This document shows, piece after piece, positions 7,287-64,000 of a stretch of 64,000 bases of DNA. The notes below the pieces were generated by a model. The model was not told where the DNA came from. It saw nothing but the letters and a program-made list of their open reading frames with translations, and searched no databases. Both the position numbers and the translations under genes were made by a program. The stretch comes from Bacteroidales bacterium (GTDB lineage: Bacteria; Bacteroidota; Bacteroidia; Bacteroidales; Muribaculaceae): NCBI GenBank assembly GCA_910575545.1, contig CAJTFH010000006.1, forward strand, positions 1-64,000, read 5' to 3'. Positions within the stretch are counted from its first letter, which is position 1; every line of letters starts with the position of its first letter.

Positions 7287-10058
7287 TTAGCCCACAACTA
7301 TGTTGACTATCTTTCCAGGAACAACGATTACCTTGCGTATCTGTTTCCCTTCAATCCATCTGGCGCTGTTTTCATGAGCAAGCACCATCTTTTCAACTTC
7401 CGAAGCAGGCATGTCGGCAGCCACACTCACATTGAAACGGGCTTTGCCGTTGAAGCTGACGGCATAATTAACATTGGCTTCCTTAAGATACTCTTCATTC
7501 CATTGCGGCCATGCGGCGTCACACACAGTGGTGTCATTTCCTATGGCATGCCACAATTCCTCTGCCACATGGGGAGCAAACGGGGCAAGAAGCACCAACA
7601 GGTCGGAAAGCACCGCCCTGTTATGGCATTTCTGAGATGTGAGTTCATTGACACATATCATGAATGCACTCACCGAAGTGTTATATGAGAATCCTTCTAT
7701 ATCGGTTGTCACCTTCTTTATGAGTTTGTGAATGGACTTGAGCGATTCTGCAGAAGGCTCATCATCATTGACAAGCAACATGTCACCTTTATAGAACAGG
7801 TTCCAAAGTTTCTTTATAAAACGGTTAACACCGTCAATGCCGTTGGTATCCCACGGTTTGCTCTGCTCTACCGGGCCGAGAAACATCTCATAAAGACGCA
7901 ATGTGTCGGCTCCGTAACGCTCAACAATATCATCAGGATTGACAACGTTGAACATCGATTTCGACATCTTTTCAACAGCATAGCCGCACACATATTTCCC
8001 CTCTTCAAGAATAAATTCCGCACCGGCATATTCCGGACGCCAGCCACGGAATTTTTCTATGTCAAGCACATCGTTTGTAACAATGTTTACATCGACATGG
8101 ATAGGGGTGACATCATAATCTTTCTTGAGATTATATGATACGAATTTATTGGTGTCTTTTATACGATAGACGAAGTTGCTCCTACCCTGTATCATTCCCT
8201 GGTTGATGAGTTTGCGGAACGGTTCATTCTCGCATACCTTTCCAAGGTCATATAGGAACTTATTCCAGAAACGGGAATATATAAGATGGCCGGTAGCATG
8301 TTCAGTGCCACCTACATAGAGGTCTACGTTACGCCAGTAATCATTAGCCTCTTTACCCACAAGAGCACTGTCGTTGTGGGGATCCATATAGCGGAGATAA
8401 TATGCCGAAGACCCTGCGAATCCTGGCATCGTGTTGAGTTCGAGGGGATAACCATCGGCGGTCTGCCAGTTTTTCGCACGTCCTAACGGCGGTTCTCCGG
8501 TCTCAGTAGGCAGATATTTGTCTATCTCAGGCAATTGGAGAGGCAATTGGCTCTCATCAAACATATATGGTATGCCATCTTTATAATAGACCGGAAATGG
8601 CTCACCCCAATAGCGCTGGCGGCTGAAAATTGCATCGCGTAAGCGGTAATTGGTTTTGACTTTACCTATACCCTTTTCCTCTATGAACCGCTTGGTGGCT
8701 GCAATGGCATCTTTAACTTCCATGCCGTTAAGATTAAGTTCAGGCCCGTCTGAATTTATCATTCTGCCCTCTTTGGCATCGAAGCTCTCTTCGCTCACAT
8801 CAGCCCCTTCAATAAGCGGAATTACAGGAAGGTCGAAATGGCGGGCAAAAGCATAGTCACGACTGTCGTGAGCCGGAACAGCCATGATTGCTCCTGTGCC
8901 GTAACCGGCAAGCACGTAATCGCTTACATAAACCGGAATCTCTTTGCCGGAAAGCGGATTGATGGCATAGGCACCAGTGAACACACCGCTTACCTTCTTG
9001 TCAATCATGCGTTCACGCTCTGTTTTATGCTTGATTTCATTGCGATAGGCTTCAACAGCTTCGCGGCGGTCCGCAGTTGTCACCATATCTACATATTTGC
9101 TTTCGGGAGCGAGAACCATGAATGTCACTCCGAAAACCGTGTCGGCGCGGGTTGTGAAGATTGTCATCTCCACATCGCTGTCTTTTATCTTAAACTGCAT
9201 CTCAGCCCCTTCAGAGCGGCCGATCCAGTTTCGCTGGGTCTCTTTGATTGAATCAGACCATTCAAGTTTCTCAAGGTCATCGAGCAGACGCGGTGCATAA
9301 GCGCTGACACGCAGACACCATTGCCACATCAGCCTCTGCTCAACCGGATAGCCTCCACGGATTGAAACCCCCTCGCTCACCTCATCGTTGGCAAGCACCG
9401 TGCCGAGTTTGGCACACCAGTTGACCATCGTATTGCCCAGATATGCAAGGCGGTAGTTCATAAGCGTGTCGCTCTTCTGCCTGGCATCCATATACTGCCA
9501 TTCCTCGGCAGTGAAATTCAGAGGTTTTGTCTGCGCCGCGTTTATACCTTCCGAACCATATTTTTCAAAATGCTTTTCGAGATTCTTTATGGGCATAGCC
9601 TTGTTAACGGCAGTGTCGAAATAGTGGTTGAACATCTCGATGAAAGCCCACTGAGTCCATTTATAGTATTGCGGATCACAGGTACGTATCTCCCTGTCCC
9701 AGTCGTAACAGAATCCTATACGGTCGAGCTGACCACGGTAGCGGGTTATGTTTTCGCGGGTTGTGACTTCAGGATGCTGACCGGTCTGGATGGCATATTG
9801 CTCGGCAGGAAGCCCGTATGCGTCGTATCCCATCGGGTGGAGCACATTGAATCCGCGCAGACGCTTATAGCGGGCAAATATATCAGAAGCAATGTAGCCC
9901 AACGGATGCCCTACATGAAGCCCTGCACCCGACGGATAGGGGAACATGTCGAGAATGTAGAATTTTGGACGTGTAGAATCGGTTTCAGTCTTATAAACCT
10001 TATTATCTTTCCAATAACGCTGCCAGCGCTGTTCAATATCTTTGTGCTTGTATTCCAT
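7287..10058 (-). CDS. leuS: Leucyl-tRNA synthetase
   Basis: Class Ia aminoacyl-tRNA synthetase charging tRNA-Leu. The 923-residue chain shows the ATP-site HIGH-like motif HVGHPLGY within the first 60 residues, the CP1 editing domain with [12 protein letters not shown] and [19 protein letters not shown], the leucine-specific region, and [11 protein letters not shown] (KMSKS) before the helical anticodon-binding domain ([16 protein letters not shown]). Length is normal for Bacteroidetes. The gene stands alone between nadA, 29 bp upstream, and the terminator at 7209-7259. Confidence 0.97.
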
Positions 10059-10087
10059 CTGTCTTGTTATGTCGTTTTTTGTGATTT

Positions 10088-11053
10088 TCAGCTCATCTCA
10101 AGCATCCGCTCTATCGGGCGTCGTGCTGCCTCGGCTATTTCCGGATTTACGATAATTTCCGGCTGCTCATACTTCATTGAATTATATAGTTTCTCAAGAG
10201 TGTTGAGCTTCATGAAACTGCAATCATTGCATGCGCATGTGCTGTCTTCAGGAGGTGCCGGAATGAACATCTTTCCGGGGCATTTCTTAATCATTTCATG
10301 AAGAATGCCGCTTTCTGTGGCAACTATGAATTCGTTGGCGTCGCTTTCAAGCGCATAGTTCAGAAGAGCCGCCGTACTACCGACTTTATCTGCCACAAGC
10401 ACAACGCTTTTCTTGCATTCAGGATGAACGAGCACTTTTGCCTGTGGATGTTCACTCTTCAACTGAAGTATTTTTTCAAGAGAGAACTGTTCATGCACAT
10501 GACATGCACCGTTCCAAAGCAGCATCTCCCTTCCGGTGACTGAATTTATATAATTGCCAAGATTCCTGTCTGGCCCGAAAATGATTTTTTCATCAGCAGG
10601 AAGCTGGTCTACTATATTTTTCGCATTCGACGATGTTACAACAACATCAGTCAGGGCCTTCACCGCGGCAGAAGTATTCACATAACTGACCACCGTGTGG
10701 CCAGGATGCTCTTTTATGAATGCCTCGAACTCGTCGGCCTTGCATGAGTCAGCCAAAGAGCATCCGGCATTCATGTCGGGAACAACCACCTTTTTGGCCG
10801 GGCAGAGAATTTTGGCGGTCTCTCCCATGAAATGCACCCCACACAAAACAATCATCCTGTTGGGCAGTGTCTGCGCTATCCTGGCTAAAGCAAGCGAATC
10901 TCCTATGAAATCTGCCACATCCTGGATTTCCCCTTTCTGGTAGTAATGAGCCAGCACAACGGCATCTTTCTCCTTTTTCAGTCGTTGTATTTCTTTTCTG
11001 AGGTCGAGACCTTCTTCAACCGGGGCATCCACAAACCCTTTTTCCACATTCAT
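10088..11053 (-). CDS. nadA: Quinolinate synthase A
   Basis: Condenses iminoaspartate with dihydroxyacetone phosphate to quinolinate in de novo NAD synthesis; carries an oxygen-sensitive 4Fe-4S cluster. The 321 residues include [20 protein letters not shown], a cysteine in ILCPAKKV (C84), HPECKKSV (C213) and a C-terminal CACNDC group (C273-C278), matching the expected cluster ligands. The start is preceded by an AT-rich region with DnaA-box-like motifs; one such motif (11039-11047) lies inside the first codons. A -7-like element (CAAAGTTA, 11270-11277, read on the minus strand) may drive it through a leader of about 200 nt. nadB is not adjacent. Confidence 0.96.
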
Positions 11054-11477
11054 TTCTTTATATTTAAAATGATTGAAAATAATCTTTGAAAAAATCAGCT
11101 TTTCTTAAATAGTAATAATGGGTGTTGAAATCAATGATAACTTTCTAACCGTTTTCTTGTTTTTTCAGGTTATTGAATAGAACTCCACAGAAACAACACC
11201 GTTATTAACACATGCAACTATTGATCATCAGTTGTTTATGATGCTTATCAACATTGTGTTAATAACATGCAAAGTTAATAACTTTCTTTGAATAGAACCA
11301 TCAATAACTGTGGAAATCACCATTGAAAACCATTTTATAACACACTTCGGTTTGATTTGTATGTTTAATAAGATTGCTTTATACAATGTCTTTCTGCCTA
11401 TTTCCAAATATGGTTGATTCTTTTTCACAACAGCTCTTTCAACCTGTTTTCCACATTTCTCCACATGTTTTTCCACA
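11039..11477. other. Candidate chromosomal replication origin (oriC)
   Basis: The 524-bp gap between nadA and a lipoprotein gene holds no convincing gene. It contains DnaA-box-like 9-mers: TTTTCCACA at 11039-11047, 11447-11455 and 11469-11477; TTCTCCACA at 11457-11465; TTATCAACA at 11245-11253 (one mismatch to TTATCCACA); and ATTTCCACA on the minus strand at 11309-11317. Three lie in tandem in one orientation within 31 bp. A very AT-rich stretch (about 11048-11120) could be the unwinding element. There are also paired sequences: TTGAATAGAAC twice, GTTATTAAC and GTTAATAAC, and the near-palindrome AAAGTTAATAACTTT (11271-11285). Sampled strand composition switches from C-rich to G-rich around here. 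The call is inference; dnaA is not in the window. Confidence 0.5.
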
Positions 11478-11507
11478 CCTGTCCACCACGATGGTTTCAA
11501 TATAAAA

Positions 11508-11538
11508 AACCGCCGTATAGGAAAACTATATGACGGTT
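11508..11538 (-). terminator. Rho-independent terminator of the lipoprotein gene
   Basis: A 13-bp stem with one mismatch and one G-T pair: arms 11508-11520 (AACCGCCGTATAG) and 11526-11538 (CTATATGACGGTT), loop GAAAA. On the minus strand it is followed by a T-run. It lies 39 bp after the stop of the gene at 11577-12008. Confidence 0.75.
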
Positions 11539-11576
11539 CTGATGGATTAAAACAGGGTAGGGCTGTATCCTTGAAT

Positions 11577-12008
11577 TTATAACTCTTCGGGAGTTATGGT
11601 AATTGTCTGGGTCTTGCCTGTGCCATCTTCTACATAGACATATTTGAGACCCATTCCGAGTTCTTTGAGTCGTTTCACTGCTGATTCGCCGGCCGCTTCA
11701 ATTATGTTTGCTTTGTTTTCGGCAGAATCATCTATTTCAAGTTCTGTGCCTTCCTCATATGTGCATGTGCTCACGAGATAGCCGTCTTCGATAGCCATTT
11801 TGGTGAGTGTGAGTCCTTCGCCTGTTTCAACCGGGAGTTCTTTGTTGACTTTCTCGATTTCATGCTCCATACCTTTGAGCATAAGTTTCTGTTTGGTTGT
11901 CAGTTCTTTGTTTTCAGAACCTGTTTCCCCCTCATTTTTTGAACCTGAGCATGAAGACATACCAAACACGAGAACGGCAGCTGTGAATAATTTCAGAATT
12001 TTTGTCAT
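11577..12008 (-). CDS. Small lipoprotein of unknown function
   Basis: 143 residues. The N terminus is a lipoprotein signal (MTKILKLFTAAVLVFGMSSC) with the lipobox cysteine at residue 20, followed by a Ser/Gly/Glu-rich linker and a compact acidic domain of about 110 residues (for example GEGLTLTKMAIEDGYLV and GLKYVYVEDGTGKTQTITI). It is probably anchored to a membrane facing the periplasm or surface. I do not recognise the domain. It has its own promoter (12047-12077) and terminator (11508-11538), so it is a monocistronic unit beside the candidate origin. Confidence 0.8.
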   Translation of the reverse strand: MTKILKLFTAAVLVFGMSSCSGSKNEGETGSENKELTTKQKLMLKGMEHEIEKVNKELPVETGEGLTLTKMAIEDGYLVSTCTYEEGTELEIDDSAENKANIIEAAGESAVKRLKELGMGLKYVYVEDGTGKTQTITITPEEL

Positions 12009-12046
12009 GTTAAAGAAATTTTAATTGTTAAGTCTTTATAGTTATG

Positions 12047-12077
12047 CAAAGTTATCCCATTAAATCGGTTCGGCAAA
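12047..12077 (-). promoter_or_regulatory. Bacteroidetes-type promoter for the lipoprotein gene
   Basis: Read on the minus strand: -33 TTTG (12077-12074), 19-bp spacer, -7 TAACTTTG (12054-12047). Both boxes match the Bacteroidetes sigma-ABfr consensus TTTG and TAnnTTTG. The start codon at 12008 lies about 40 bp downstream. Confidence 0.7.
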
Positions 12078-12086
12078 GCAGCCATG

Positions 12087-12116
12087 TTGTTTTTTGGAGG
12101 ATTATTAGTAGATTTG
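12087..12116 (+). promoter_or_regulatory. Promoter for the MscS-type channel gene
   Basis: A -33 TTG (12087-12089), 19-bp spacer and -7 TAGATTTG (12109-12116). Transcription would begin near 12123, after the first ATG of the frame (12084), so translation must start at 12129 or later. It overlaps the divergent promoter region of the lipoprotein gene. Confidence 0.5.
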
Positions 12117-12128
12117 CAAAAGGGAAGG

Positions 12129-13358
12129 ATGGAATGTTTTAGAACCCAAATGCATAGTTTGAGAATCATGGTAGATGCTGTTAAAGAATTTCTTACGTCT
12201 AATATTTCAGGGCCGATGAGTGGCCAGATTATAACTCTTGTGCAGCTTTGTGGAATTTTACTTGTTGCTGTTGCAGCTTACTATCTGACTAAAAAAATCC
12301 TGATGGTTCTGGAAAAAGCCATTCTCAGAAGCCCTACGGAGTGGGACGATGACCTGTTGAATCCCCGTTTCATGCGGGCTGTTTCTCAGTTGTCGCCTGC
12401 AATAACAGTGGCATGGTTGCTTCCGAAATTTTTCTCTGATACGCCTGGAGAGGTAAGATGGATAGATATCCTGACTTCCCTTTATATACTTTGGGCTGGA
12501 GTCAGGATTGTGACCATCTTCATAGATAATCTTTATGATGCCTTTATCAGCCGTGAACAGCTCCGGCCATATGCAATCAAGGGGATTTTCCAGATGTTCA
12601 AATTGGTAGTGATTTCCGTTGGTGCAATCATAGCGCTTAGCATATTGATAAATAAAACCCCTGTGGCTATTCTAACGGCTTTGGGTGCTTCTGCCGCAGT
12701 GTTGATGTTGGTGTTTAAAGACACTATTCTCGGCCTGGTGGCCAGTGTGCAGCTTACCGCTAACAAGATGCTCGACCGTGGCGATTGGATTTCTATGCCG
12801 AACCGTGACCTTAACGGTGAGGTGCTCGATGTGTCGCTGACAACGGTGAAGGTTCGTAACTGGGATAATTCAGTTACAACGGTTCCTCCATATTCTTTGG
12901 TTTCAGAATCATTCCGCAATTATCGTCCGATGCAGGAATCGGGAGGCAGACGGGTTGACCGTTCTGTTTATATCGACGTCAACACGGTCGGTTTCCTTTC
13001 TTCTGAAGAAATTGAAACGCTCCGCTCCGAAGGTTTTCTCAACGGCATTGAGTCTAAAAACAACTCCCGTGTGGTGAATCTCGGTCTTTGGCGTGATTAT
13101 ATTGAGGATTATCTGCGTAAACGTTCCGATATAAACTCTGAAATGACTTTGATGGTGCGCCAGATGCAGCCTACGAATGCCGGATTGCCGGTGCAGTTAT
13201 ATTTTTTCACCCGCACAACCGCTTGGGTGGAATATGAGCATATACAGGCTGATGTGTTCGACCATGTGTATGCAACCGTGCGCCGTTTCGGGTTAGCTAT
13301 ATATCAATCGCCGGCCGGCACTGATTTGTGTCGGATCGGGACATATTCAAGAATATAG
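12129..13358 (+). CDS. MscS-family mechanosensitive channel, YbdG-like
   Basis: Inner-membrane channel that opens under membrane tension to release osmolytes. Four or so hydrophobic segments precede the MscS core: GASAAVLMLVFKDTILGLVA is the pore-lining helix region, followed by the beta domain (DWISMPNRDLNGEVLDVSL and VRNWDNSVTTVPPYSLVSE) and a C-terminal cytoplasmic domain. Total length, about 410 residues, and the insert after NYRPMQESGGRRVDRS match the YbdG subgroup. The frame is open from 12084, but the promoter at 12087-12116 excludes that start; ATGs at 12129, 12150 and 12168 are candidates. It is divergent from the lipoprotein gene. Confidence 0.88.
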   Translation: MECFRTQMHSLRIMVDAVKEFLTSNISGPMSGQIITLVQLCGILLVAVAAYYLTKKILMVLEKAILRSPTEWDDDLLNPRFMRAVSQLSPAITVAWLLPKFFSDTPGEVRWIDILTSLYILWAGVRIVTIFIDNLYDAFISREQLRPYAIKGIFQMFKLVVISVGAIIALSILINKTPVAILTALGASAAVLMLVFKDTILGLVASVQLTANKMLDRGDWISMPNRDLNGEVLDVSLTTVKVRNWDNSVTTVPPYSLVSESFRNYRPMQESGGRRVDRSVYIDVNTVGFLSSEEIETLRSEGFLNGIESKNNSRVVNLGLWRDYIEDYLRKRSDINSEMTLMVRQMQPTNAGLPVQLYFFTRTTAWVEYEHIQADVFDHVYATVRRFGLAIYQSPAGTDLCRIGTYSRI

Positions 13359-13430
13359 TGACATGCCTTTGTTGATCGCCTGGAATTAGAATAACCGCTG
13401 TTGTAATTATTGTTTTAAACGGTTTATCTA

Positions 13431-14360
13431 TCATTGCTGATGCCGTTTGTTTCGGGGATGGTGGGTGAGTATTTCTTCGCGCAGATGCGAGTTGTCGAGA
13501 TGAATATAGATTTCAGTGGTGGAGATGTTTTCATGACCCAGCATGGCTTGGATAGCTCTGAGATTGGCACCTCCTTCAAGCAGGTGTGTCGCGAATGAAT
13601 GACGCAAAGTGTGGGGGGAAATTGTCTTGTTTATCCCGGCGGCTTCAGCCAGGCGCGAAATCATTATGAACACCATCTGGCGTGTCAGCCGTCTGCCCCA
13701 GCGGTTAAGGAAGATGAACCTGTCTTCACCCGGTTTTATTCCATAAATGCCACGCGTGCCTTCCATGTATGCCTTTATGCATTCCACAGCTATAGGCGAT
13801 ATGGGCACAAGCCGTTGTTTGTTGCCTTTACCGGTAATTATCAGATATTCCTCGTCGGGTGATATGCTTCCTACTTCAAGGTTAAGCAGTTCCGACACCC
13901 GTAGCCCGCATCCGTAAAGAGTTTCTATAATAGCCTGGTCACGGTCGCCATAAGGAGATTGGGGGCCTATGGCTTCAATCATTGCGTCTATCTCTTCTAT
14001 GCTCAAAACATCAGGCAGTTTGCGCCCCAGGCGTGGTGTTTCAAGAAGCTCAGAAGGGTCTGCTTCAATATAATTCTCGATTTTCAGAAAATGGAAAAAA
14101 GAGCGTATGCCCGAAATTACCCGTTTTCTTGAAGCAGGTGCTATTCCAAGATCGTAGAGCACGGTTGCGAAATCTTCAAGTTTCTCGTAGGTGACATCGC
14201 GCAGACGCACCCCTTCGTCGATAAGGTAATCCAGCAGTTTTCCCACATCAGAGGAATATGCCTCTGCCGTAAGTTTCGATAAACCACGCTGAAGTGTGAG
14301 ATAGCCACGGTAATCGCGCAGAATGGCATTGATATCGTTGATACTTCTCAGCTGGGGCAT
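13431..14360 (-). CDS. xerD: Tyrosine recombinase XerD/XerC
   Basis: Site-specific recombinase that resolves chromosome dimers at dif. The 309 residues comprise an N-terminal SAM-like core-binding domain (1-105) and a catalytic domain with the full set of residues: R154 (YGCGLRVSELLNL), K178 (GKGNKQR), H250 and R253 (HTLRHSFATHL), H276 (MLGHENIS) and nucleophile Y285 (TTEIYIHL). Length and a context free of mobile genes favour the housekeeping enzyme over a phage integrase. XerD versus XerC cannot be settled here; XerD is preferred by overall resemblance. Confidence 0.88.
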   Translation of the reverse strand: MPQLRSINDINAILRDYRGYLTLQRGLSKLTAEAYSSDVGKLLDYLIDEGVRLRDVTYEKLEDFATVLYDLGIAPASRKRVISGIRSFFHFLKIENYIEADPSELLETPRLGRKLPDVLSIEEIDAMIEAIGPQSPYGDRDQAIIETLYGCGLRVSELLNLEVGSISPDEEYLIITGKGNKQRLVPISPIAVECIKAYMEGTRGIYGIKPGEDRFIFLNRWGRRLTRQMVFIMISRLAEAAGINKTISPHTLRHSFATHLLEGGANLRAIQAMLGHENISTTEIYIHLDNSHLREEILTHHPRNKRHQQ

Positions 14361-14384
14361 TATATAGTGTCGGGGAGGAGATTG

Positions 14385-15017
14385 CTACATGAATACTTCA
14401 TAGTCGGTGCGGGGCAGCTTGCGTCGGGCAACGAATATGCCTGTGTATCCGTCGGTGAAAGACATGCCGAAAGGTGTGGCGTCGAGAATCTCACGCCATA
14501 TCGACGCGAATGCCGGAACTGAATGAAGGTTGCGCATGATCAGCACAATGTCGCGCGAGGCTACCAGATTGCGAAGAAGTTCCATTGTCTCTTCGGCTTC
14601 TTCATTGCTGCATTGGTTTGCAATCACAACCGGCTCACCTGTTGGTTCAGGAGTTATGCTTTTGCCACTATGGAAAAATTTAGTTTTTGCGCGGGGCACA
14701 GCGTTGCGCAGAATCACATTTGTCACCTCATGGCCATGTCCGATTTCAATGATTTCTTCCGGATTGAAATAACACAGGACCCTGAATATCAATTGCCCTT
14801 CAGGAATAGACATGTCGCGGCCGGCAAAAATCTCATTGAATCCGGCTTTGCGCGATTTGGGGCAGAATGCCGCAATTTTGGCATATGCATAATACACTGC
14901 CTTCCGCTCGCCGATTACCTTTGTTATGAAATGATAGGCGAAAGGGGAGTGCACACCGAATCCGCGGCTACGGTGCCACATAGCCGGGTATTTCAATATT
15001 TCCTTCAGCTTTTTCAT
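14385..15017 (-). CDS. Degenerate SAM-methyltransferase-like protein
   Basis: 210 residues, no signal peptide. The N-terminal MWHRSRGFGVHSPFAYHF is characteristic of a Bacteroidetes family usually labelled class I SAM-dependent methyltransferase. The expected glycine-rich SAM loop is poorly kept: the matching segment reads EIIEIGHGHEVTNVILRNA. The second half (EAEETMELLRNLVASRDIVLIMRNLHSV) keeps the spacing of the Rossmann strands. It lies 23 bp after the YfhO-like gene and 24 bp before xerD, so it is probably in one operon. Whether it still binds SAM is unclear. Confidence 0.7.
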   Translation of the reverse strand: MKKLKEILKYPAMWHRSRGFGVHSPFAYHFITKVIGERKAVYYAYAKIAAFCPKSRKAGFNEIFAGRDMSIPEGQLIFRVLCYFNPEEIIEIGHGHEVTNVILRNAVPRAKTKFFHSGKSITPEPTGEPVVIANQCSNEEAEETMELLRNLVASRDIVLIMRNLHSVPAFASIWREILDATPFGMSFTDGYTGIFVARRKLPRTDYEVFM

Positions 15018-57293: not shown

Positions 57294-60200
57294 TCAGCGC
57301 TTGATAAAGCGCACCGCCGTGTGGTTGCCCTTACGGTCGGCGATATCAGCGATATATGTGCCGGGGGAAAGCGTGGCTGTAGATGCCGAAGCGCTCCCTT
57401 CCAGTTCGTGGGCTGCATGGAGCATCCCGTCGGGCGAATAGATGCGGAGAGTGTAGTCACCTTCGATTCCGATAACCGACAGAAGGTCTGCGTTAGGAGT
57501 GAGAACCTTCACATCGTTCCAGGATGCTGCATCGAGAGCGGAATATGCCGGGTCGGGAGCACCGATGCGGTCGAAGCAGGCGTAGGCGGGAACTTTGTCG
57601 GGTTGCGAGCTGTCGTAGCTGAAACGGAGTTTGCTGACTTTGCCCAGCGGAGACAGATCGAACCATTTCCAGTCGGAGAGAACGGACGTGGCGTCGGCGC
57701 GGGTCTCTGTTGAGGTGCGGAAATCAGCCAGCGGAATTTCAACCGTGGCTTTGACAGTACCGGCAGCATCGAGTCCTTCGATAAAGAGGGTGAAATAGTC
57801 GCCGTTTTCCGCAGAGAATTTCTCGCACCAGCCATCGCCGTTGAGCATTGAATTCATCGCATAGGCTGTGTTGGTGACATAGATACCAGGCACAGAAAGC
57901 CCTTCGTCGGAAGCAGCCCCGATAGCAACAGACATGTCGTTGCCTCCCATCATGTAGGCTACCCCGTAGTTGGACGAACCGTCGGCACCTCCCCCCACGA
58001 CATTGCGGAACTGGTCGTGGTAGTCGCGGAACTCCGTTGAGGTCTCGTTGGCATAGCCGTAGCCTGTCCATGAAGCATACAGGAACCAGGGATAGTTGGG
58101 GAAACGGAATGAGCCGCTGTAGAACATGTCGGAGGTGGCATCTTCGGGCAGGGTGGTGTCGAACATCCAGTAGCTTTCGGATTCAAGCGGCAGGTCGTCG
58201 AAATCGGCGATATGCAATTTGCCGTTAAGCACATCGACAAGGATTTTCGCACGGGCTTCCTGCCCGTCGGCAGAGGATACGCATATGCGGTATGTTCCGC
58301 TGACAGTAGCCTCGCGGGTCAGAACGGCGTCGCTGCCTACTACATTGCCCATCTGGTCAGTCCATTCATAGCTGTAGGGCGTTTTACCACCTGCAGCTAA
58401 TGCCTCAACGGAAAGTGTCTCACCTTCGTTGATTGCCGTGCCGTCGAAATCGGTCTCTACGGTCAGCGGCTCGATGGTTTCAAGCGTTGTGAACTCCTCG
58501 GATGCTATGATGTCAGACTCCATGCCCAATGCGCTCACTGCAAGGAAGTAGGCCTTATAGGCTGTGAGCTGGTCGAGGAACCGGAAATTGGTAGTGACTT
58601 CCGCATCAGCCTCGAAGGCCGCATGGCGCGATGATTTGATTTCGTCGGCTGTGGGAGCCTCTTCCGAGGCTTCCTTCACCATTGAATAGAGGCTTCCCCC
58701 TATGTTCCAGCGGGTGCGGACTGTTGCTGTGGCGTCGGTCAGGAGGCCTGTCTGCGGATAACCGTCGGCGATTGCGGGTGCATCCTGCGACACTGCAGCG
58801 AACTCATATGCCCCTGCGGTTGTCTGAGCAGGGCGTTCCTTTCCGTCGGCATCTGCCGCCACTGCGTCGAGACGCTCCATGGCTATCCCCTCCGGGGCTT
58901 GGAGCAGATGGAGGTCGGTTGCGCTAAGGAATTCCACTCTCTGCCAAAGTGAAGTGTTGTCGGAGGCGAGAACCTGGTAGCTTTCAAAGGTGGTGGGGGT
59001 GGTTTCATTGTCGATATTCCGGGTTCCGGCTGCGCCATAATAGACGTTTCCGCTGAAAGAAACAGATTCATAGACATTGACATCAGGCACGGTCATAACC
59101 GGACTGATTGACCCGCCCTGGAATATGTTGTTGCGGACTTCAAGGCCTGAAATGTCGGAGGTTTTGCCGGAGATTGCAAAGGGATAGCCCTCTTTGGCTG
59201 TCTCAGAGCCGCCGACAAACGAACTGTTGTGGGCAATCACGAGGTTGTGGATCTGGGCGGCAGCCTGGATGCCTCTCGAAGAAGTGCCATGACCTTTGAC
59301 GATTGACACTGCGTTGTTGACCACCATTGCTGGATGTGAGGCGTCCTCAGTGCCGGCAGCCCCGTTGGCACGCATATAGATGCCGGTGGAGTATTGGCCG
59401 AGGTCGTTTACCACTTTGTTGGAGGCGATGACGAATGCTCCGTGGGGCCAGTAGATATCCATTCCCTGGTAGTCGTTTTTGGTCGACGTGGAGCATGCCA
59501 CCGTGTTGCCTTCAACAGTGAAATCCTCGGCATTTGCCAGATAGATGCCTTTGGAGCGGGCATTAACAATCGTGTTGCCTTTAACCACAATCCCTTTCTC
59601 GTTTGGTTCGGCCACTTTCTGGCTTCCATACGAATAGATTGAGATGAATCCGTTTTCAAAATAGGAATCCTTGACTGTCAGATAGTCGCAGTTCTGGTTG
59701 GCTTCGCTGCCCGATTCGGTCTTTACAAGCGATGTGCCTGTAGAGCCTGAGGCTTCGGCGCCGATTACGGCGCAGTTGTCGATAACACCGTAGCGGGAAC
59801 TGTTGCGGTAGAGGATAATCGAGGGGTATGTAGCGCTTGAGGTAGAGAATGTGAGAGTACGGAAGTGGATGTAAGGGGTGTTCTCGACTGTCACCATCGG
59901 GTTTGACGTGTCGAGCGAGCCGGTAATCAGCACTGCGTCGCGGTTGCCCGATAGGGAGGTGAAAATCACCGGATGGGCTTCGGAAGTGCCCTGCACGTTT
60001 GCGATTTCTATGTTTTCTTTGTATTCCCCGTCTTCAAGCTGGAAGATAACGACATCTTCAACACCGCATTTCAGGGCGTTGACGGCAGCAGAGATGGTTT
60101 TATAAAGCGCCTGGTCAGACGGGCCTATGCGGTATGTGCCACCCATGCCTGTGATTATGTGGCGCGAGCCGGTGGCTTCAGGCACTTCTACAGATGCGCC

Positions 60201-63200
60201 ATTGGCAGTCAGGCTGCTCAGACGCACAGAAGCGACATTGTCGGGCACAGCCTTCGCCGAAAGGTCGGCGGCAATCCACAGGTTGTAGCTTCCGGCCTCA
60301 TCTACCACAATCGGTTCATCGAGGGTGAATGTGGCCACTCCGTCGGCAAGTTCTGTCACTTTTGCAATCTGCGTTGTGGCTGAATAAGAGGTTGACTTTC
60401 CGGTGTAGCAGAGCGAAGCGGAAATGATGTCGGCAGTATTGGTCGATGGGGTGAAGTCTGCTTTTATTTCCGAAATCGATATTTTGCCATAGTTTCCACT
60501 GACATTTAATGTTGCCTGGAGCAGAGCCACATTTTCCGCCCCACGGGTTACATCTTCATCTGAGGCGGGTGCGCACTCCACCGATTCCACCACATGGTCA
60601 ACAGGTTCGACAGGGGTGATGGCGATTGCGAAACCTGATGTGGAGCTGTAGGTGCTGCCGGTGAATGTGATGGTGATAGTGCCGTCGTCGGCTTTGGAGA
60701 AGAGATTGTCAGGGCCTGTTGTGGATGAATAGCCTGTGACAGAACCTATTTTTGCGTTTTCAACGGCTTCACGGCCGCTGTAGACATACATGCGGCCTGA
60801 GCCGATGCCGCAGTCAACGGTGTTGATGCCGATGATTTTCCCGACGGGTGGAACAAGCGTCACCTGGCCCTGGAAGTTCTTCGTGTAATTGCCGTCGGGG
60901 CCTCCGTCGTCGTAGAGAATCAGGGCCTTGTCGACATTCACAACAGCCTCGCCGGGCTGCATTATATGGATGTTTTTGGTAAGGCGAACTCCTTCGGGGT
61001 CGCCATTCTCAACTGCGTAGGTCTTGTCGCCGAACAGGAGGGCCGTCAAGGCGGCATCAACCTCAACGTCGCTCTCAACAGATTCATTAACATCGACAGC
61101 CACACGGAACCAGTTGCTCTGGTCGGCAAGCACGGTCGAGGTGTTGTCGGCCGATGGCAGAATAGTGACCTCGTTGCCTTCAGCAGGCATTCCGGCCTCA
61201 CCCCAGACCACTGCTTTCGTGGGGTCGTTGGTGTCGCCCGTCGACAGCAGGGTGATTTTGGCAATCTCCGAACCCCCTTTAAGGCGCAGTTTCACTCCTG
61301 TGAGGTGGAGAGGGTTCTTCAATCCTTCGGTGTAGACGTTGAAATCGATGACAGGTTCGCCGGTGGCACCCGGTGCGAGAATGGCATCGCTTGCCTGGAC
61401 GGCATCGACTTTCCGCACCTCCGCGTCATGGTCGATATACTGGCGCACGGCGGCTTTCCATCCTTTCCGGGTGTAATAGCTTGATGTGGTGTTGGGGTTG
61501 AATCTAACGGTCAGAGAACCGTCGGCAGCCGTAGAGCGTAATTTCTTGCCGGGGCCGGTTTCGGCTTTCGAGGCATCGTCGAGTTTCCACAGAAGGTTTG
61601 ACTGCCGGGTATCTGTGCCGCTGTATATTTCAAAAAGGGCTTTAGTGCCATATGATGTGGAAGCATACTGAACATCAAACGAAGAAAACTCCAATTCAAC
61701 CACAGCCCCCGGTTCCGACGGCATGAAAGTGACGATATGGTCGGCATTGACTGCCGGATAGTTTTCGCTGTAAGATGTGGGAGGCGCCGCAGGGCTGTAG
61801 AATTCCCATTCGCTGTAGAGGGTGTGGGAATGGGATCCTTCGGTCATGGTGCAATGGTTGCTGATTGTCACTTTGGCCGGGATGTCTTCGGCGGGAGTGG
61901 CCGAAGTATCACCAACTTTCACCGTGCCTAATTTTATTGATGCCTCCATTGCATTGAGGGCTTCGGGGTCGATATCGGCGGTAACGGCAAACCAGTTGTC
62001 TCCCTCGGCGAGACGGCATTCACCTGTAAGTGCCGTGCCTGATGCGGAGAATGGGCTTTCTGCGTAAAGGCCAGACAGTGGGGCGTTTTTGTTTTCCCCG
62101 AGTTGGAATACCGCCACTTTTTCGATGGCGGCGCTTTCAGCCCCTGCGGGAACTGTCACGGCCACTTCTCTTAACTGAATGGGATTCAGTTGGTTTTCTG
62201 CCTTGATATTGAAATAGAGCATCGGCACACGCTGCTGACCGGCATAGGCGAATGTTTCGGTTCCGGCGGCTTCAACATCGAGGCCTGTGAATGTCATCTG
62301 CGTGGGGACGAACTGCGACACTGTGGCTTCCCACCCTTTTTGCCGCTGGTTTTCGTTGCCTTGTTTTGATCTGAACCACACGGTCAGAGAGCCGTCGGGG
62401 GCAGATGATTTGATGTTTTTCGGATTTTCAACCAGGGTGGCGATAAGGTTCTCTTCCAATGCTTCCCGCCCGTTGTAGATTTTCATCACGTCGTTGTTGC
62501 CTACCGACACAGCCGAGGAATTGTCGAAAAGTTTGAACTGGGAGAAGTCGATTTTCACCGACTGCCCTTCGGTGGCGGGGATGAAGGTTGCAGTGCCCTC
62601 GGAGTTCATCGGGATATTCCCGTCTGCTCCACCTGCGTCGAAAAACGCAACATCATCGCCTACGGTATAAATCTGATGGGATTTGTCGGCAGCTATCAGG
62701 ATGCTGTTGGCGATTTCGAGGGTGGCGACCGCCGATGCATCGACCTGGCGGGACTCTCCGGCCACAGAAAGCGCCGATACCTCCGGAGCGGCGAGTGCAC
62801 CGGTCACGTCGGGTTTCACATCGGCATATATCGAATAGGGGTTGGTGCGTTTCAAAACGGCTCCTGACACGGCAAAAGATGTTTCACCCTCGTCAAGTGT
62901 GGCCACCAAGGCCTCTTCTTTAGGCTCGGCTGCGCTGTATAGGCGGATATTCTCCACTTTGCCGGAAGCGGCGGTGGCTGTGAGGTCGAATGAGAGGTTG
63001 TCGATTGACAGCGGGTTGAGAGTGCCGTCGGTGGCTATGTCGAAATTCAGCAACGGTATGTTTTTTGCCCCGCGCCAGGCCTGTGTGGAGGCATTCGTCG
63101 CGGTGGCGCTGACAAAGGTCATATCGTGTGGCACACCGGCTGTCACCGTTGCGGTGTAGGTGCCGGTGATTGTGCCGGAACTTGCCGCAGGGGCGGCATA

Positions 63201-63617
63201 CAGCACACAGAGTTTACCGGAAACGGCGGTGTATTCAATTCCCTCCTCCGCAGGTGTCATCGCCACGAGGTATCCCTCCGGAGCAGGTTTTGAATAGCCT
63301 GTGAAACTGGTTTTAAGAGCTTCGTCACCGTCATAAACAAATACCACCGGCTTGTCGCCACGCAGGCAATTGAAGTCGGTAAAGGTTATCGACACCGGAT
63401 CCCCTTCGTTCTCCGCGGAGAAAGTAACCCATCCGCCATTAAAAGTCGGAGGATTTGATGGATAGCCCATGTTGTGGTAAATCACACCCTCGGGGCCTAC
63501 GGTGTAGTCACATTCCGCAGTATGGAGGTCTTTTTTCGGATGGTTCCATTCCGGCGTTGCCGCCACGGTTGTAGCCATGGCAAACATTGCAATCAAAAAA
63601 GTCGGAAGACGTTTCAT
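57294..63617 (-). CDS. Giant modular T9SS-exported surface protein with DUF4465-like module
   Basis: 2107 residues with a signal peptide (MKRLPTFLIAMFAMATTVAA). Residues 25-1150: four CUB-like beta modules (for example VAFFDAGGADGNIPMNSEG, ILYDDGGPDGNYTKNFQG), each followed by a domain like the N-terminal BNR-neuraminidase-associated one (LLNFDIATDGTLNPLSIDNL). About 1160-1605: right-handed beta-helix (IVVKGNTIVNARSKGIYLAN). About 1610-1797: fibronectin- and Ig-like domains. About 1800-2025: DUF4465-like module (VVGGGADGSSNYGVAYM, PGIYVTNTAYAMNSMLNGDG, AYACFDRIG). About 2030-2107: T9SS sorting domain (LSPGTYIADI). A cobalamin riboswitch lies about 250 nt upstream on the same strand with no gene between, so expression should fall when B12 is plentiful. 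A role in surface capture of cobalamin is inference. Confidence 0.85.
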   Translation of the reverse strand: MKRLPTFLIAMFAMATTVAATPEWNHPKKDLHTAECDYTVGPEGVIYHNMGYPSNPPTFNGGWVTFSAENEGDPVSITFTDFNCLRGDKPVVFVYDGDEALKTSFTGYSKPAPEGYLVAMTPAEEGIEYTAVSGKLCVLYAAPAASSGTITGTYTATVTAGVPHDMTFVSATATNASTQAWRGAKNIPLLNFDIATDGTLNPLSIDNLSFDLTATAASGKVENIRLYSAAEPKEEALVATLDEGETSFAVSGAVLKRTNPYSIYADVKPDVTGALAAPEVSALSVAGESRQVDASAVATLEIANSILIAADKSHQIYTVGDDVAFFDAGGADGNIPMNSEGTATFIPATEGQSVKIDFSQFKLFDNSSAVSVGNNDVMKIYNGREALEENLIATLVENPKNIKSSAPDGSLTVWFRSKQGNENQRQKGWEATVSQFVPTQMTFTGLDVEAAGTETFAYAGQQRVPMLYFNIKAENQLNPIQLREVAVTVPAGAESAAIEKVAVFQLGENKNAPLSGLYAESPFSASGTALTGECRLAEGDNWFAVTADIDPEALNAMEASIKLGTVKVGDTSATPAEDIPAKVTISNHCTMTEGSHSHTLYSEWEFYSPAAPPTSYSENYPAVNADHIVTFMPSEPGAVVELEFSSFDVQYASTSYGTKALFEIYSGTDTRQSNLLWKLDDASKAETGPGKKLRSTAADGSLTVRFNPNTTSSYYTRKGWKAAVRQYIDHDAEVRKVDAVQASDAILAPGATGEPVIDFNVYTEGLKNPLHLTGVKLRLKGGSEIAKITLLSTGDTNDPTKAVVWGEAGMPAEGNEVTILPSADNTSTVLADQSNWFRVAVDVNESVESDVEVDAALTALLFGDKTYAVENGDPEGVRLTKNIHIMQPGEAVVNVDKALILYDDGGPDGNYTKNFQGQVTLVPPVGKIIGINTVDCGIGSGRMYVYSGREAVENAKIGSVTGYSSTTGPDNLFSKADDGTITITFTGSTYSSTSGFAIAITPVEPVDHVVESVECAPASDEDVTRGAENVALLQATLNVSGNYGKISISEIKADFTPSTNTADIISASLCYTGKSTSYSATTQIAKVTELADGVATFTLDEPIVVDEAGSYNLWIAADLSAKAVPDNVASVRLSSLTANGASVEVPEATGSRHIITGMGGTYRIGPSDQALYKTISAAVNALKCGVEDVVIFQLEDGEYKENIEIANVQGTSEAHPVIFTSLSGNRDAVLITGSLDTSNPMVTVENTPYIHFRTLTFSTSSATYPSIILYRNSSRYGVIDNCAVIGAEASGSTGTSLVKTESGSEANQNCDYLTVKDSYFENGFISIYSYGSQKVAEPNEKGIVVKGNTIVNARSKGIYLANAEDFTVEGNTVACSTSTKNDYQGMDIYWPHGAFVIASNKVVNDLGQYSTGIYMRANGAAGTEDASHPAMVVNNAVSIVKGHGTSSRGIQAAAQIHNLVIAHNSSFVGGSETAKEGYPFAISGKTSDISGLEVRNNIFQGGSISPVMTVPDVNVYESVSFSGNVYYGAAGTRNIDNETTPTTFESYQVLASDNTSLWQRVEFLSATDLHLLQAPEGIAMERLDAVAADADGKERPAQTTAGAYEFAAVSQDAPAIADGYPQTGLLTDATATVRTRWNIGGSLYSMVKEASEEAPTADEIKSSRHAAFEADAEVTTNFRFLDQLTAYKAYFLAVSALGMESDIIASEEFTTLETIEPLTVETDFDGTAINEGETLSVEALAAGGKTPYSYEWTDQMGNVVGSDAVLTREATVSGTYRICVSSADGQEARAKILVDVLNGKLHIADFDDLPLESESYWMFDTTLPEDATSDMFYSGSFRFPNYPWFLYASWTGYGYANETSTEFRDYHDQFRNVVGGGADGSSNYGVAYMMGGNDMSVAIGAASDEGLSVPGIYVTNTAYAMNSMLNGDGWCEKFSAENGDYFTLFIEGLDAAGTVKATVEIPLADFRTSTETRADATSVLSDWKWFDLSPLGKVSKLRFSYDSSQPDKVPAYACFDRIGAPDPAYSALDAASWNDVKVLTPNADLLSVIGIEGDYTLRIYSPDGMLHAAHELEGSASASTATLSPGTYIADIADRKGNHTAVRFIKR

Positions 63618-63870
63618 GAAAAAATGTGTTGTTGGTTAATAATTATCAATAATTGCGATAACCATCTTCCACACAATGAAATGCCGGGTTGAAAAAGGAT
63701 AGACACAACGATGCCGGCGAAACCGCGAATAGGGATTCGTCGTTGCAAGCAGTCAGACCCGCAGGTCGCCTGTTGTGATGAAATCGGTTTGGCTTAAACG
63801 GAAAATGTCGGCAGCCCCAGTCTTAATCCTCGAAGACATATCAGTTGGTTTGATGGCTAAAAACGACGCA

Positions 63871-64000
63871 CAGGCAGGTCTTCTGACTTATCTTCATTTC
63901 CTGTCGGCCTTGCCTTCCCACGCCCCTTTACAGACAGGGGGCAGTGGCATTTCCTTACGGAACCGGCCAGACAAGATGGATTTTACAAGTGTCGACTCTT
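63871..64000 (-). promoter_or_regulatory. Cobalamin (B12) riboswitch, 3' part; 5' part beyond window
   Basis: Read on the minus strand: ATGCCACTGCCCC (conserved GCCACTG at 63948-63941 and neighbours), GTGGGAAGGC (GGGAAGGC at 63919-63912), then the B12 box AAGTCAGAAGACCTGCCTG (63889-63871). Order and spacing match the AdoCbl/cobalamin riboswitch core. The upstream half, expected to contain the GGGAA..CCGG segment, lies past base 64000. The next gene downstream on this strand is the giant T9SS protein, start 63617. The intervening 250 nt contain a short GACC-TGC-GGGTC hairpin (in 63740-63765) but no reading frame of note. Confidence 0.9.

What the first reader, a model, noticed from the sequence alone, without database searches (positions are those of the whole stretch)
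58000..58230. DUF4465-like module placed just before the T9SS sorting domain in the B12-controlled protein
Residues about 1800-2025 show the DUF4465 pattern (GGGADGSSNYGVAY, YVTNTAYAMNSMLNGDG, PAYACFDRIG). From memory, DUF4465 proteins recur in Bacteroidetes B12 loci and may relate to cobalamin-binding surface proteins such as BtuH; I am not certain of that link. With the riboswitch, this module is the best candidate for binding cobalamin, with CUB-like and beta-helix parts as a long stalk or glycan-contact region.
Basis: partly seen in the sequence, partly recalled or inferred. Interest (0 to 1): 0.8.

Follow-up and report, generated by a model that had tools for sequence, protein, structure and literature searches.

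The report
Giant surface protein carrying B12-binding domain
A gut bacterium encodes a 2,107-residue surface protein, apparently made when vitamin B12 runs low, whose last module before its anchor belongs to a domain family recently shown to grip B12; the module is known, but its mounting in a giant secreted protein with a separate, B12-regulated front half appears to be new.

Summary
Residues 1801-2020 (window 57558-58217, minus strand) of the 2107-aa ORF are a DUF4465 domain (PF14717, E 3e-42) directly before a T9SS tail. DUF4465 is no longer of unknown function: eight diverse members bind vitamin B12 (PMC13398666). The nearest solved chain is a B12 complex (9HMU, 3e-28), and both named B12-contact tyrosines of BtuJ1 are present (Y1919, Y2012). 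The BtuH link is wrong; the relatives are BtuJ1/BtuJ2. The riboswitch is real (71.3 bits once followed past the window edge) and is the only one detected in this genome, as is the DUF4465.

New here: a conserved giant architecture, [CUB-like + Ig]n - beta-helix - FN3 - PKD - DUF4465 - tail, found in 40 Muribaculaceae genomes; 38 of 39 testable genes have a cobalamin riboswitch just upstream. Related genes keep the riboswitch with only the back half (3 genomes) or only the front half (4 genomes without any DUF4465), so the front half is probably more than a stalk. C-terminal anchoring should put DUF4465 near the membrane.

The parts
57294..63617 (-). ORF of the 2107-aa secreted multidomain protein (signal-peptide-like N-terminus, no lipobox Cys)
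57558..58217 (-). DUF4465 (PF14717) domain, residues 1801-2020; Pfam core 57564-58079
57861..57863 (-). Tyr1919 codon, aligned with BtuJ1 Tyr146 (DE loop/helix B12 contact)
57582..57584 (-). Tyr2012 codon, aligned with BtuJ1 Tyr245 (HI loop B12 contact, here VPAY)
57297..57488 (-). T9SS type A C-terminal sorting domain (TIGR04183), residues 2044-2107
   Evidence: profile A2 also hits solved T9SS tails (8qb1, 8glk)
58233..58520 (-). PKD/Ig-like domain, residues 1700-1795, kept next to DUF4465 in relatives
58488..58784 (-). FN3-like domain, residues 1612-1710 (named by appearance; no Pfam hit)
58782..60149 (-). Right-handed beta-helix domain, residues 1157-1612
60147..63527 (-). Four CUB-like + BNR_assoc_N (Ig-like) pairs, residues 31-1157
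63856..64000 (-). Cobalamin riboswitch RF00174, 3' part; runs on to contig position 64124 outside the window

Best explanation
The protein is a cobalamin-scavenging surface protein. When B12 is scarce the riboswitch lets the gene be expressed (shown: riboswitch sequence and position; inferred: OFF-switch logic, from the known behaviour of Bacteroidetes cobalamin riboswitches). The protein is exported by Sec and then the type IX system, which removes the tail and fixes the protein by its C-terminal end to the outer surface (shown: tail and a SprA gene; inferred: export and anchoring). The DUF4465 jelly-roll next to the anchor binds cobalamin through its DE and HI loops (inferred from family biochemistry and conserved tyrosines) and holds it near the BtuB/BtuG-like uptake proteins encoded elsewhere in the genome (inferred). 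The distal CUB/Ig/beta-helix half probably has its own contact role, with a glycan, a matrix or a B12-carrying partner (inferred).
For: DUF4465 membership, E 3e-42; D5EK51-B12 complex 9HMU at 3e-28. Both named contact tyrosines present. In 40 giant homologues the HI position is Tyr in 37 and the DE position Tyr or Trp in 37. Eight of eight published family members bind B12. The only cobalamin riboswitch detected in the genome lies 238 nt upstream, and 38 of 39 testable giants have one just upstream. SprA and 28 T9SS-tail matches in the genome. BtuB-like and BtuG-like genes at contig C10, one FecCD permease, and a B12-dependent methylmalonyl-CoA mutase.
Against: No binding or expression measurement exists for this protein. 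Two sister giants (G008, G010) have lost both tyrosines (M/L and L/L), so binding is not constant in the group. No structural model could be made. The BtuB-like locus in this genome has no detectable riboswitch, so co-regulation with uptake genes is not shown.
Confidence: 0.78

Rival explanations
1. The front half (CUB/Ig/beta-helix) is the main functional part, for example a glycan or partner adhesin made under B12 limitation, and DUF4465 is an optional capture add-on.
For: Four genomes keep riboswitch + front half + short tail without DUF4465 anywhere; the beta-helix is well conserved across giants.
Against: The four genomes form one clade on a long branch, so it may be a single, decaying case. 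Three other genomes keep only PKD-DUF4465-tail under the riboswitch, and three genomes of other families have no CUB/Ig part.
Confidence: 0.2
2. The DUF4465 here has lost B12 binding and serves another role, such as a structural cap before the anchor.
For: Relatives G008 and G010 in the same genus lost both contact tyrosines.
Against: The window protein keeps both tyrosines and the P-x-Y of the HI loop, and its nearest solved match is a B12 complex.
Confidence: 0.08
3. The riboswitch serves another transcript and the giant gene lies downstream of it by chance.
For: The leader is long (238 nt), and in relative G176 the riboswitch is 4.5 kb away.
Against: Same strand, 65-750 nt upstream, in 38 of 39 testable giants, although genomes of this family carry only about 1-5 such riboswitches each.
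Confidence: 0.02

Closest known systems
BtuJ1 (BT_1491, PDB 9FCT) and BtuJ2 (9I2L), B. thetaiotaomicron
   Same: DUF4465 domain; riboswitch-regulated; B12-contact tyrosines Y146/Y245 of BtuJ1 aligned.
   Different: They are small lipoproteins encoded with btu transport genes; this one is a 2107-aa type IX cargo encoded alone.
D5EK51 of Coraliomargarita akajimensis (PDB 9HMU)
   Same: Best solved relative (3e-28), a B12 complex with matching DE-loop NT-x-Y and HI-loop VP-x-Y elements.
   Different: A chain of about 250 residues without tail or extra modules.
BtuH2 (BT_1956)
   Same: Multidomain surface protein with PKD domains before a C-terminal B12-binding domain, from riboswitch-regulated loci.
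   Different: Its B12 domain is treated as a different family in the literature; lipoprotein, not type IX cargo. Not compared directly here.
T9SS-secreted multidomain surface proteins of Bacteroidota
   Same: Signal peptide, repeated beta-rich modules, type A tail.
   Different: This group is tied to cobalamin riboswitches and carries DUF4465.

Membership tests
DUF4465 (PF14717, IPR027828) | Profile match above the curated cut-off over the whole domain | tested here: met
   145.4 bits vs cut-off 25, profile positions 3-176 of 176
DUF4465 (PF14717, IPR027828) | HI-loop tyrosine (BtuJ1 Y245) and DE-helix tyrosine (Y146) | tested here: met
   Y2012 and Y1919
DUF4465 (PF14717, IPR027828) | Augmented beta-jellyroll fold | not testable with these tools
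DUF4465 (PF14717, IPR027828) | Binds cobalamin | not testable with these tools
   Shown in the literature for eight other members
BtuJ-type DUF4465 lipoprotein | Lipoprotein signal (lipobox Cys) | tested here: not met
   No Cys in the first 35 residues
BtuJ-type DUF4465 lipoprotein | Encoded beside btuB/btuCDF transport genes | tested here: not met
   Neighbours read as an RNA methyltransferase, purD and an efflux-type operon (read from sequence); the btuB-like locus is on contig C10
BtuH | Homology of the binding domain to BtuH2's C-terminal domain | tested here: inconclusive
   No BtuH chain among PDB hits for DUF4465, beta-helix, CUB or Ig profiles, but no BtuH sequence was run as a positive control; literature treats them apart
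T9SS type A cargo | C-terminal sorting domain above cut-off | tested here: met
   24.1 bits vs 23; clearer in a relative, 31.3 bits
T9SS type A cargo | Type IX machinery in the genome | tested here: met
   SprA, 2722 bits; other components not searched
Cobalamin riboswitch RF00174 | Full-length match above gathering score upstream on the same strand | tested here: met
   71.3 bits vs 31.5, positions 1-189

The most novel reading that the evidence does not exclude
The giant is a two-ended B12-acquisition protein: the membrane-proximal DUF4465 grips cobalamin, while the distal CUB-like/Ig/beta-helix half recognises something that brings B12 (a glycan-rich surface, or a host or microbial B12-carrier protein) and is useful enough to be kept under the riboswitch when DUF4465 is gone. 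That mammals use CUB domains (cubilin) to take up intrinsic factor-B12 makes a carrier partner a testable idea, but that is speculation from my own knowledge.
Probability: 0.15. Interest if true: 0.8.

Novelty: new variant of a known kind. Interest (0 to 1): 0.5.

Why it matters
It extends probable B12 capture by DUF4465 from small lipoproteins to giant type IX cargo in a common gut family. The published family survey counts over 70% lipoproteins and the rest with periplasmic targeting, and mentions no type IX or multidomain forms. The natural set of full, front-only and back-only versions, all behind the same kind of riboswitch, makes the role of the front half directly testable.

Tried and rejected
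PDB profile searches of the CUB-like part gave chance-like WD-repeat hits and weak enteropeptidase hits; the Ig part hit the N-terminal part of sialidases weakly; the beta-helix gave only weak alpha-galactosidase hits: no ligand can be read from these. A sigma-70 scan and an RNA fold of the leader gave nothing useful, so the switching mechanism (translation or termination) is open. A riboswitch or remnant at the BtuB-like locus was sought and not found. The genome-contig scan found only one close named relative. Which architecture is ancestral was left open: trees have weak deep support.

Full report
Observation. The minus-strand ORF 57294-63617 encodes 2107 residues. Its residues 1801-2020 (57558-58217) are a DUF4465 domain: Pfam 145.4 bits, E 3e-42, boundaries widened with a profile from relatives. 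It is followed by a T9SS type A sorting tail.

Regulation. Inside the window only the 3' part of a cobalamin riboswitch is visible, below Rfam's gathering score. Followed along the contig it is a full-length RF00174 match, 71.3 bits, at C6:63856-64124 minus. It ends 238 nt before the start codon, and a Bacteroidetes-type -7 element (TAACTTTG, starting at 64126) lies at its 5' edge. It is the only cobalamin riboswitch, and the DUF4465 the only one, detected in a 99.99% complete assembly.

What the domain does. FEBS Open Bio 2026 (PMC13398666) reports that eight diverse DUF4465 proteins bind B12 by loops of an augmented jelly-roll, with conserved tyrosines on the DE helix (Y146 of BtuJ1) and HI loop (Y245). 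phmmer alignments to 9FCT and 9HMU place two tyrosines of the window protein on these positions (I counted back along the 9FCT chain numbering); they are Y1919 and Y2012. Over 44 diverse DUF4465 domains the HI position is Tyr in 42, and the DE position Tyr in 34 and Trp in 6. In 40 giant homologues the figures are 37 Tyr, and 28 Tyr plus 9 Trp. Two giants of the same genus have lost both.

BtuH or BtuJ. The DUF4465 proteins of B. theta are BtuJ1/BtuJ2. BtuH2 binds B12 with another C-terminal domain, for which a DALI search found low structural homology to any known structure. I did not compare a BtuH sequence directly.

Architecture. Profiles cut from the alignment of giants show four CUB-like + BNR_assoc_N (Ig-like) pairs, a 456-residue beta-helix, an FN3-like and a PKD-like domain, DUF4465, and the tail. 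I found 40 proteins of this type in the family: 11 in a first set of relatives and 29 more in a wider draw of 297 genomes. Two of the 29 have a single CUB-Ig pair, and one lacks the first CUB in its open frame; a tail match was not seen in every one. One first-set gene is cut by a contig end, leaving 39 testable for the riboswitch. 38 of these have it on the same strand 65-750 nt upstream: 10 from the first set and 28 from the second. The exception, G176, has one 4.5 kb upstream. The family is Muribaculaceae, judged from the named match L054, whose contig length equals that of G009's contig.

Natural variants. Back-half only: G001, G002 and G006 carry PKD-DUF4465-tail (406-410 aa) behind a riboswitch, and the neighbouring genes match those of the full-length gene in G009. 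Their DUF4465 groups with the full-length ones of the genus (99/96). Intermediate: G089, G108 and G121, from other families of the order, have beta-helix-DUF4465 proteins (FN3 and PKD matches in G108 and G121 only) behind a riboswitch. Front-half only: G004, G007, G012 and G013 have the CUB/Ig/beta-helix part followed by only about 80 residues, behind a riboswitch, with no DUF4465 in the genome. The T9SS-tail match in these is weak, below cut-off, or absent. They form one clade on a long branch, so this may be one event.

Mechanism. Shown: riboswitch, domain identity, contact residues, sorting tail, SprA, 28 tail matches in the genome, a BtuB-like/BtuG-like locus on contig C10, one FecCD permease and methylmalonyl-CoA mutase. 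Inferred: repression by B12, export and C-terminal anchoring, B12 binding, and hand-over to uptake proteins. Anchoring by the C-terminus puts DUF4465 close to the membrane and the CUB/beta-helix part outermost, which argues against the picture of that part as a stalk holding the B12 module away from the cell. What the front half contacts is unknown.

Verdict. The B12-binding assignment is expected from 2025-2026 literature. The giant type IX architecture and the riboswitch-linked front-only and back-only versions were not found in the papers read or searched, which is a limited library. Filed as a new variant of a known kind.

Noticed in passing
L061 (G000:C10:2001-22000), 8645-14665: The genome's BtuB-like/BtuG-like locus has no detectable cobalamin riboswitch, unlike the corresponding locus in relative G005; the 499-aa DUF5074 protein there ends in a weak T9SS-type tail (22.5 bits, just below cut-off).
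   Followed up: partly
L071:3004-8460 (G001): An 1818-aa protein joins six BspA-type leucine-rich repeat copies to a BtuG-type DUF5074 propeller, in a locus with a cobalamin riboswitch: a second kind of giant built on a B12-related domain.
   Followed up: partly
L032:7247-7314 (contig C6:64247-64314, just outside the window): A FopS-family sRNA (RF04319, 59 bits) lies on the same strand just upstream of the riboswitch.
   Followed up: no
L040 and L041 (G008, G010): Giants whose DUF4465 has lost both B12-contact tyrosines although the riboswitch is kept.
   Followed up: partly
G000 whole genome: A PF02310 search found methylmalonyl-CoA mutase and one weak sub-cut-off match, and no MetH-like protein.
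   Followed up: no
L048 (G121), L101 (G315): Proteins with two DUF4465 matches in one chain (tandem, with its own PKD domain, in G121; the extra match in G315 was not inspected).
   Followed up: no
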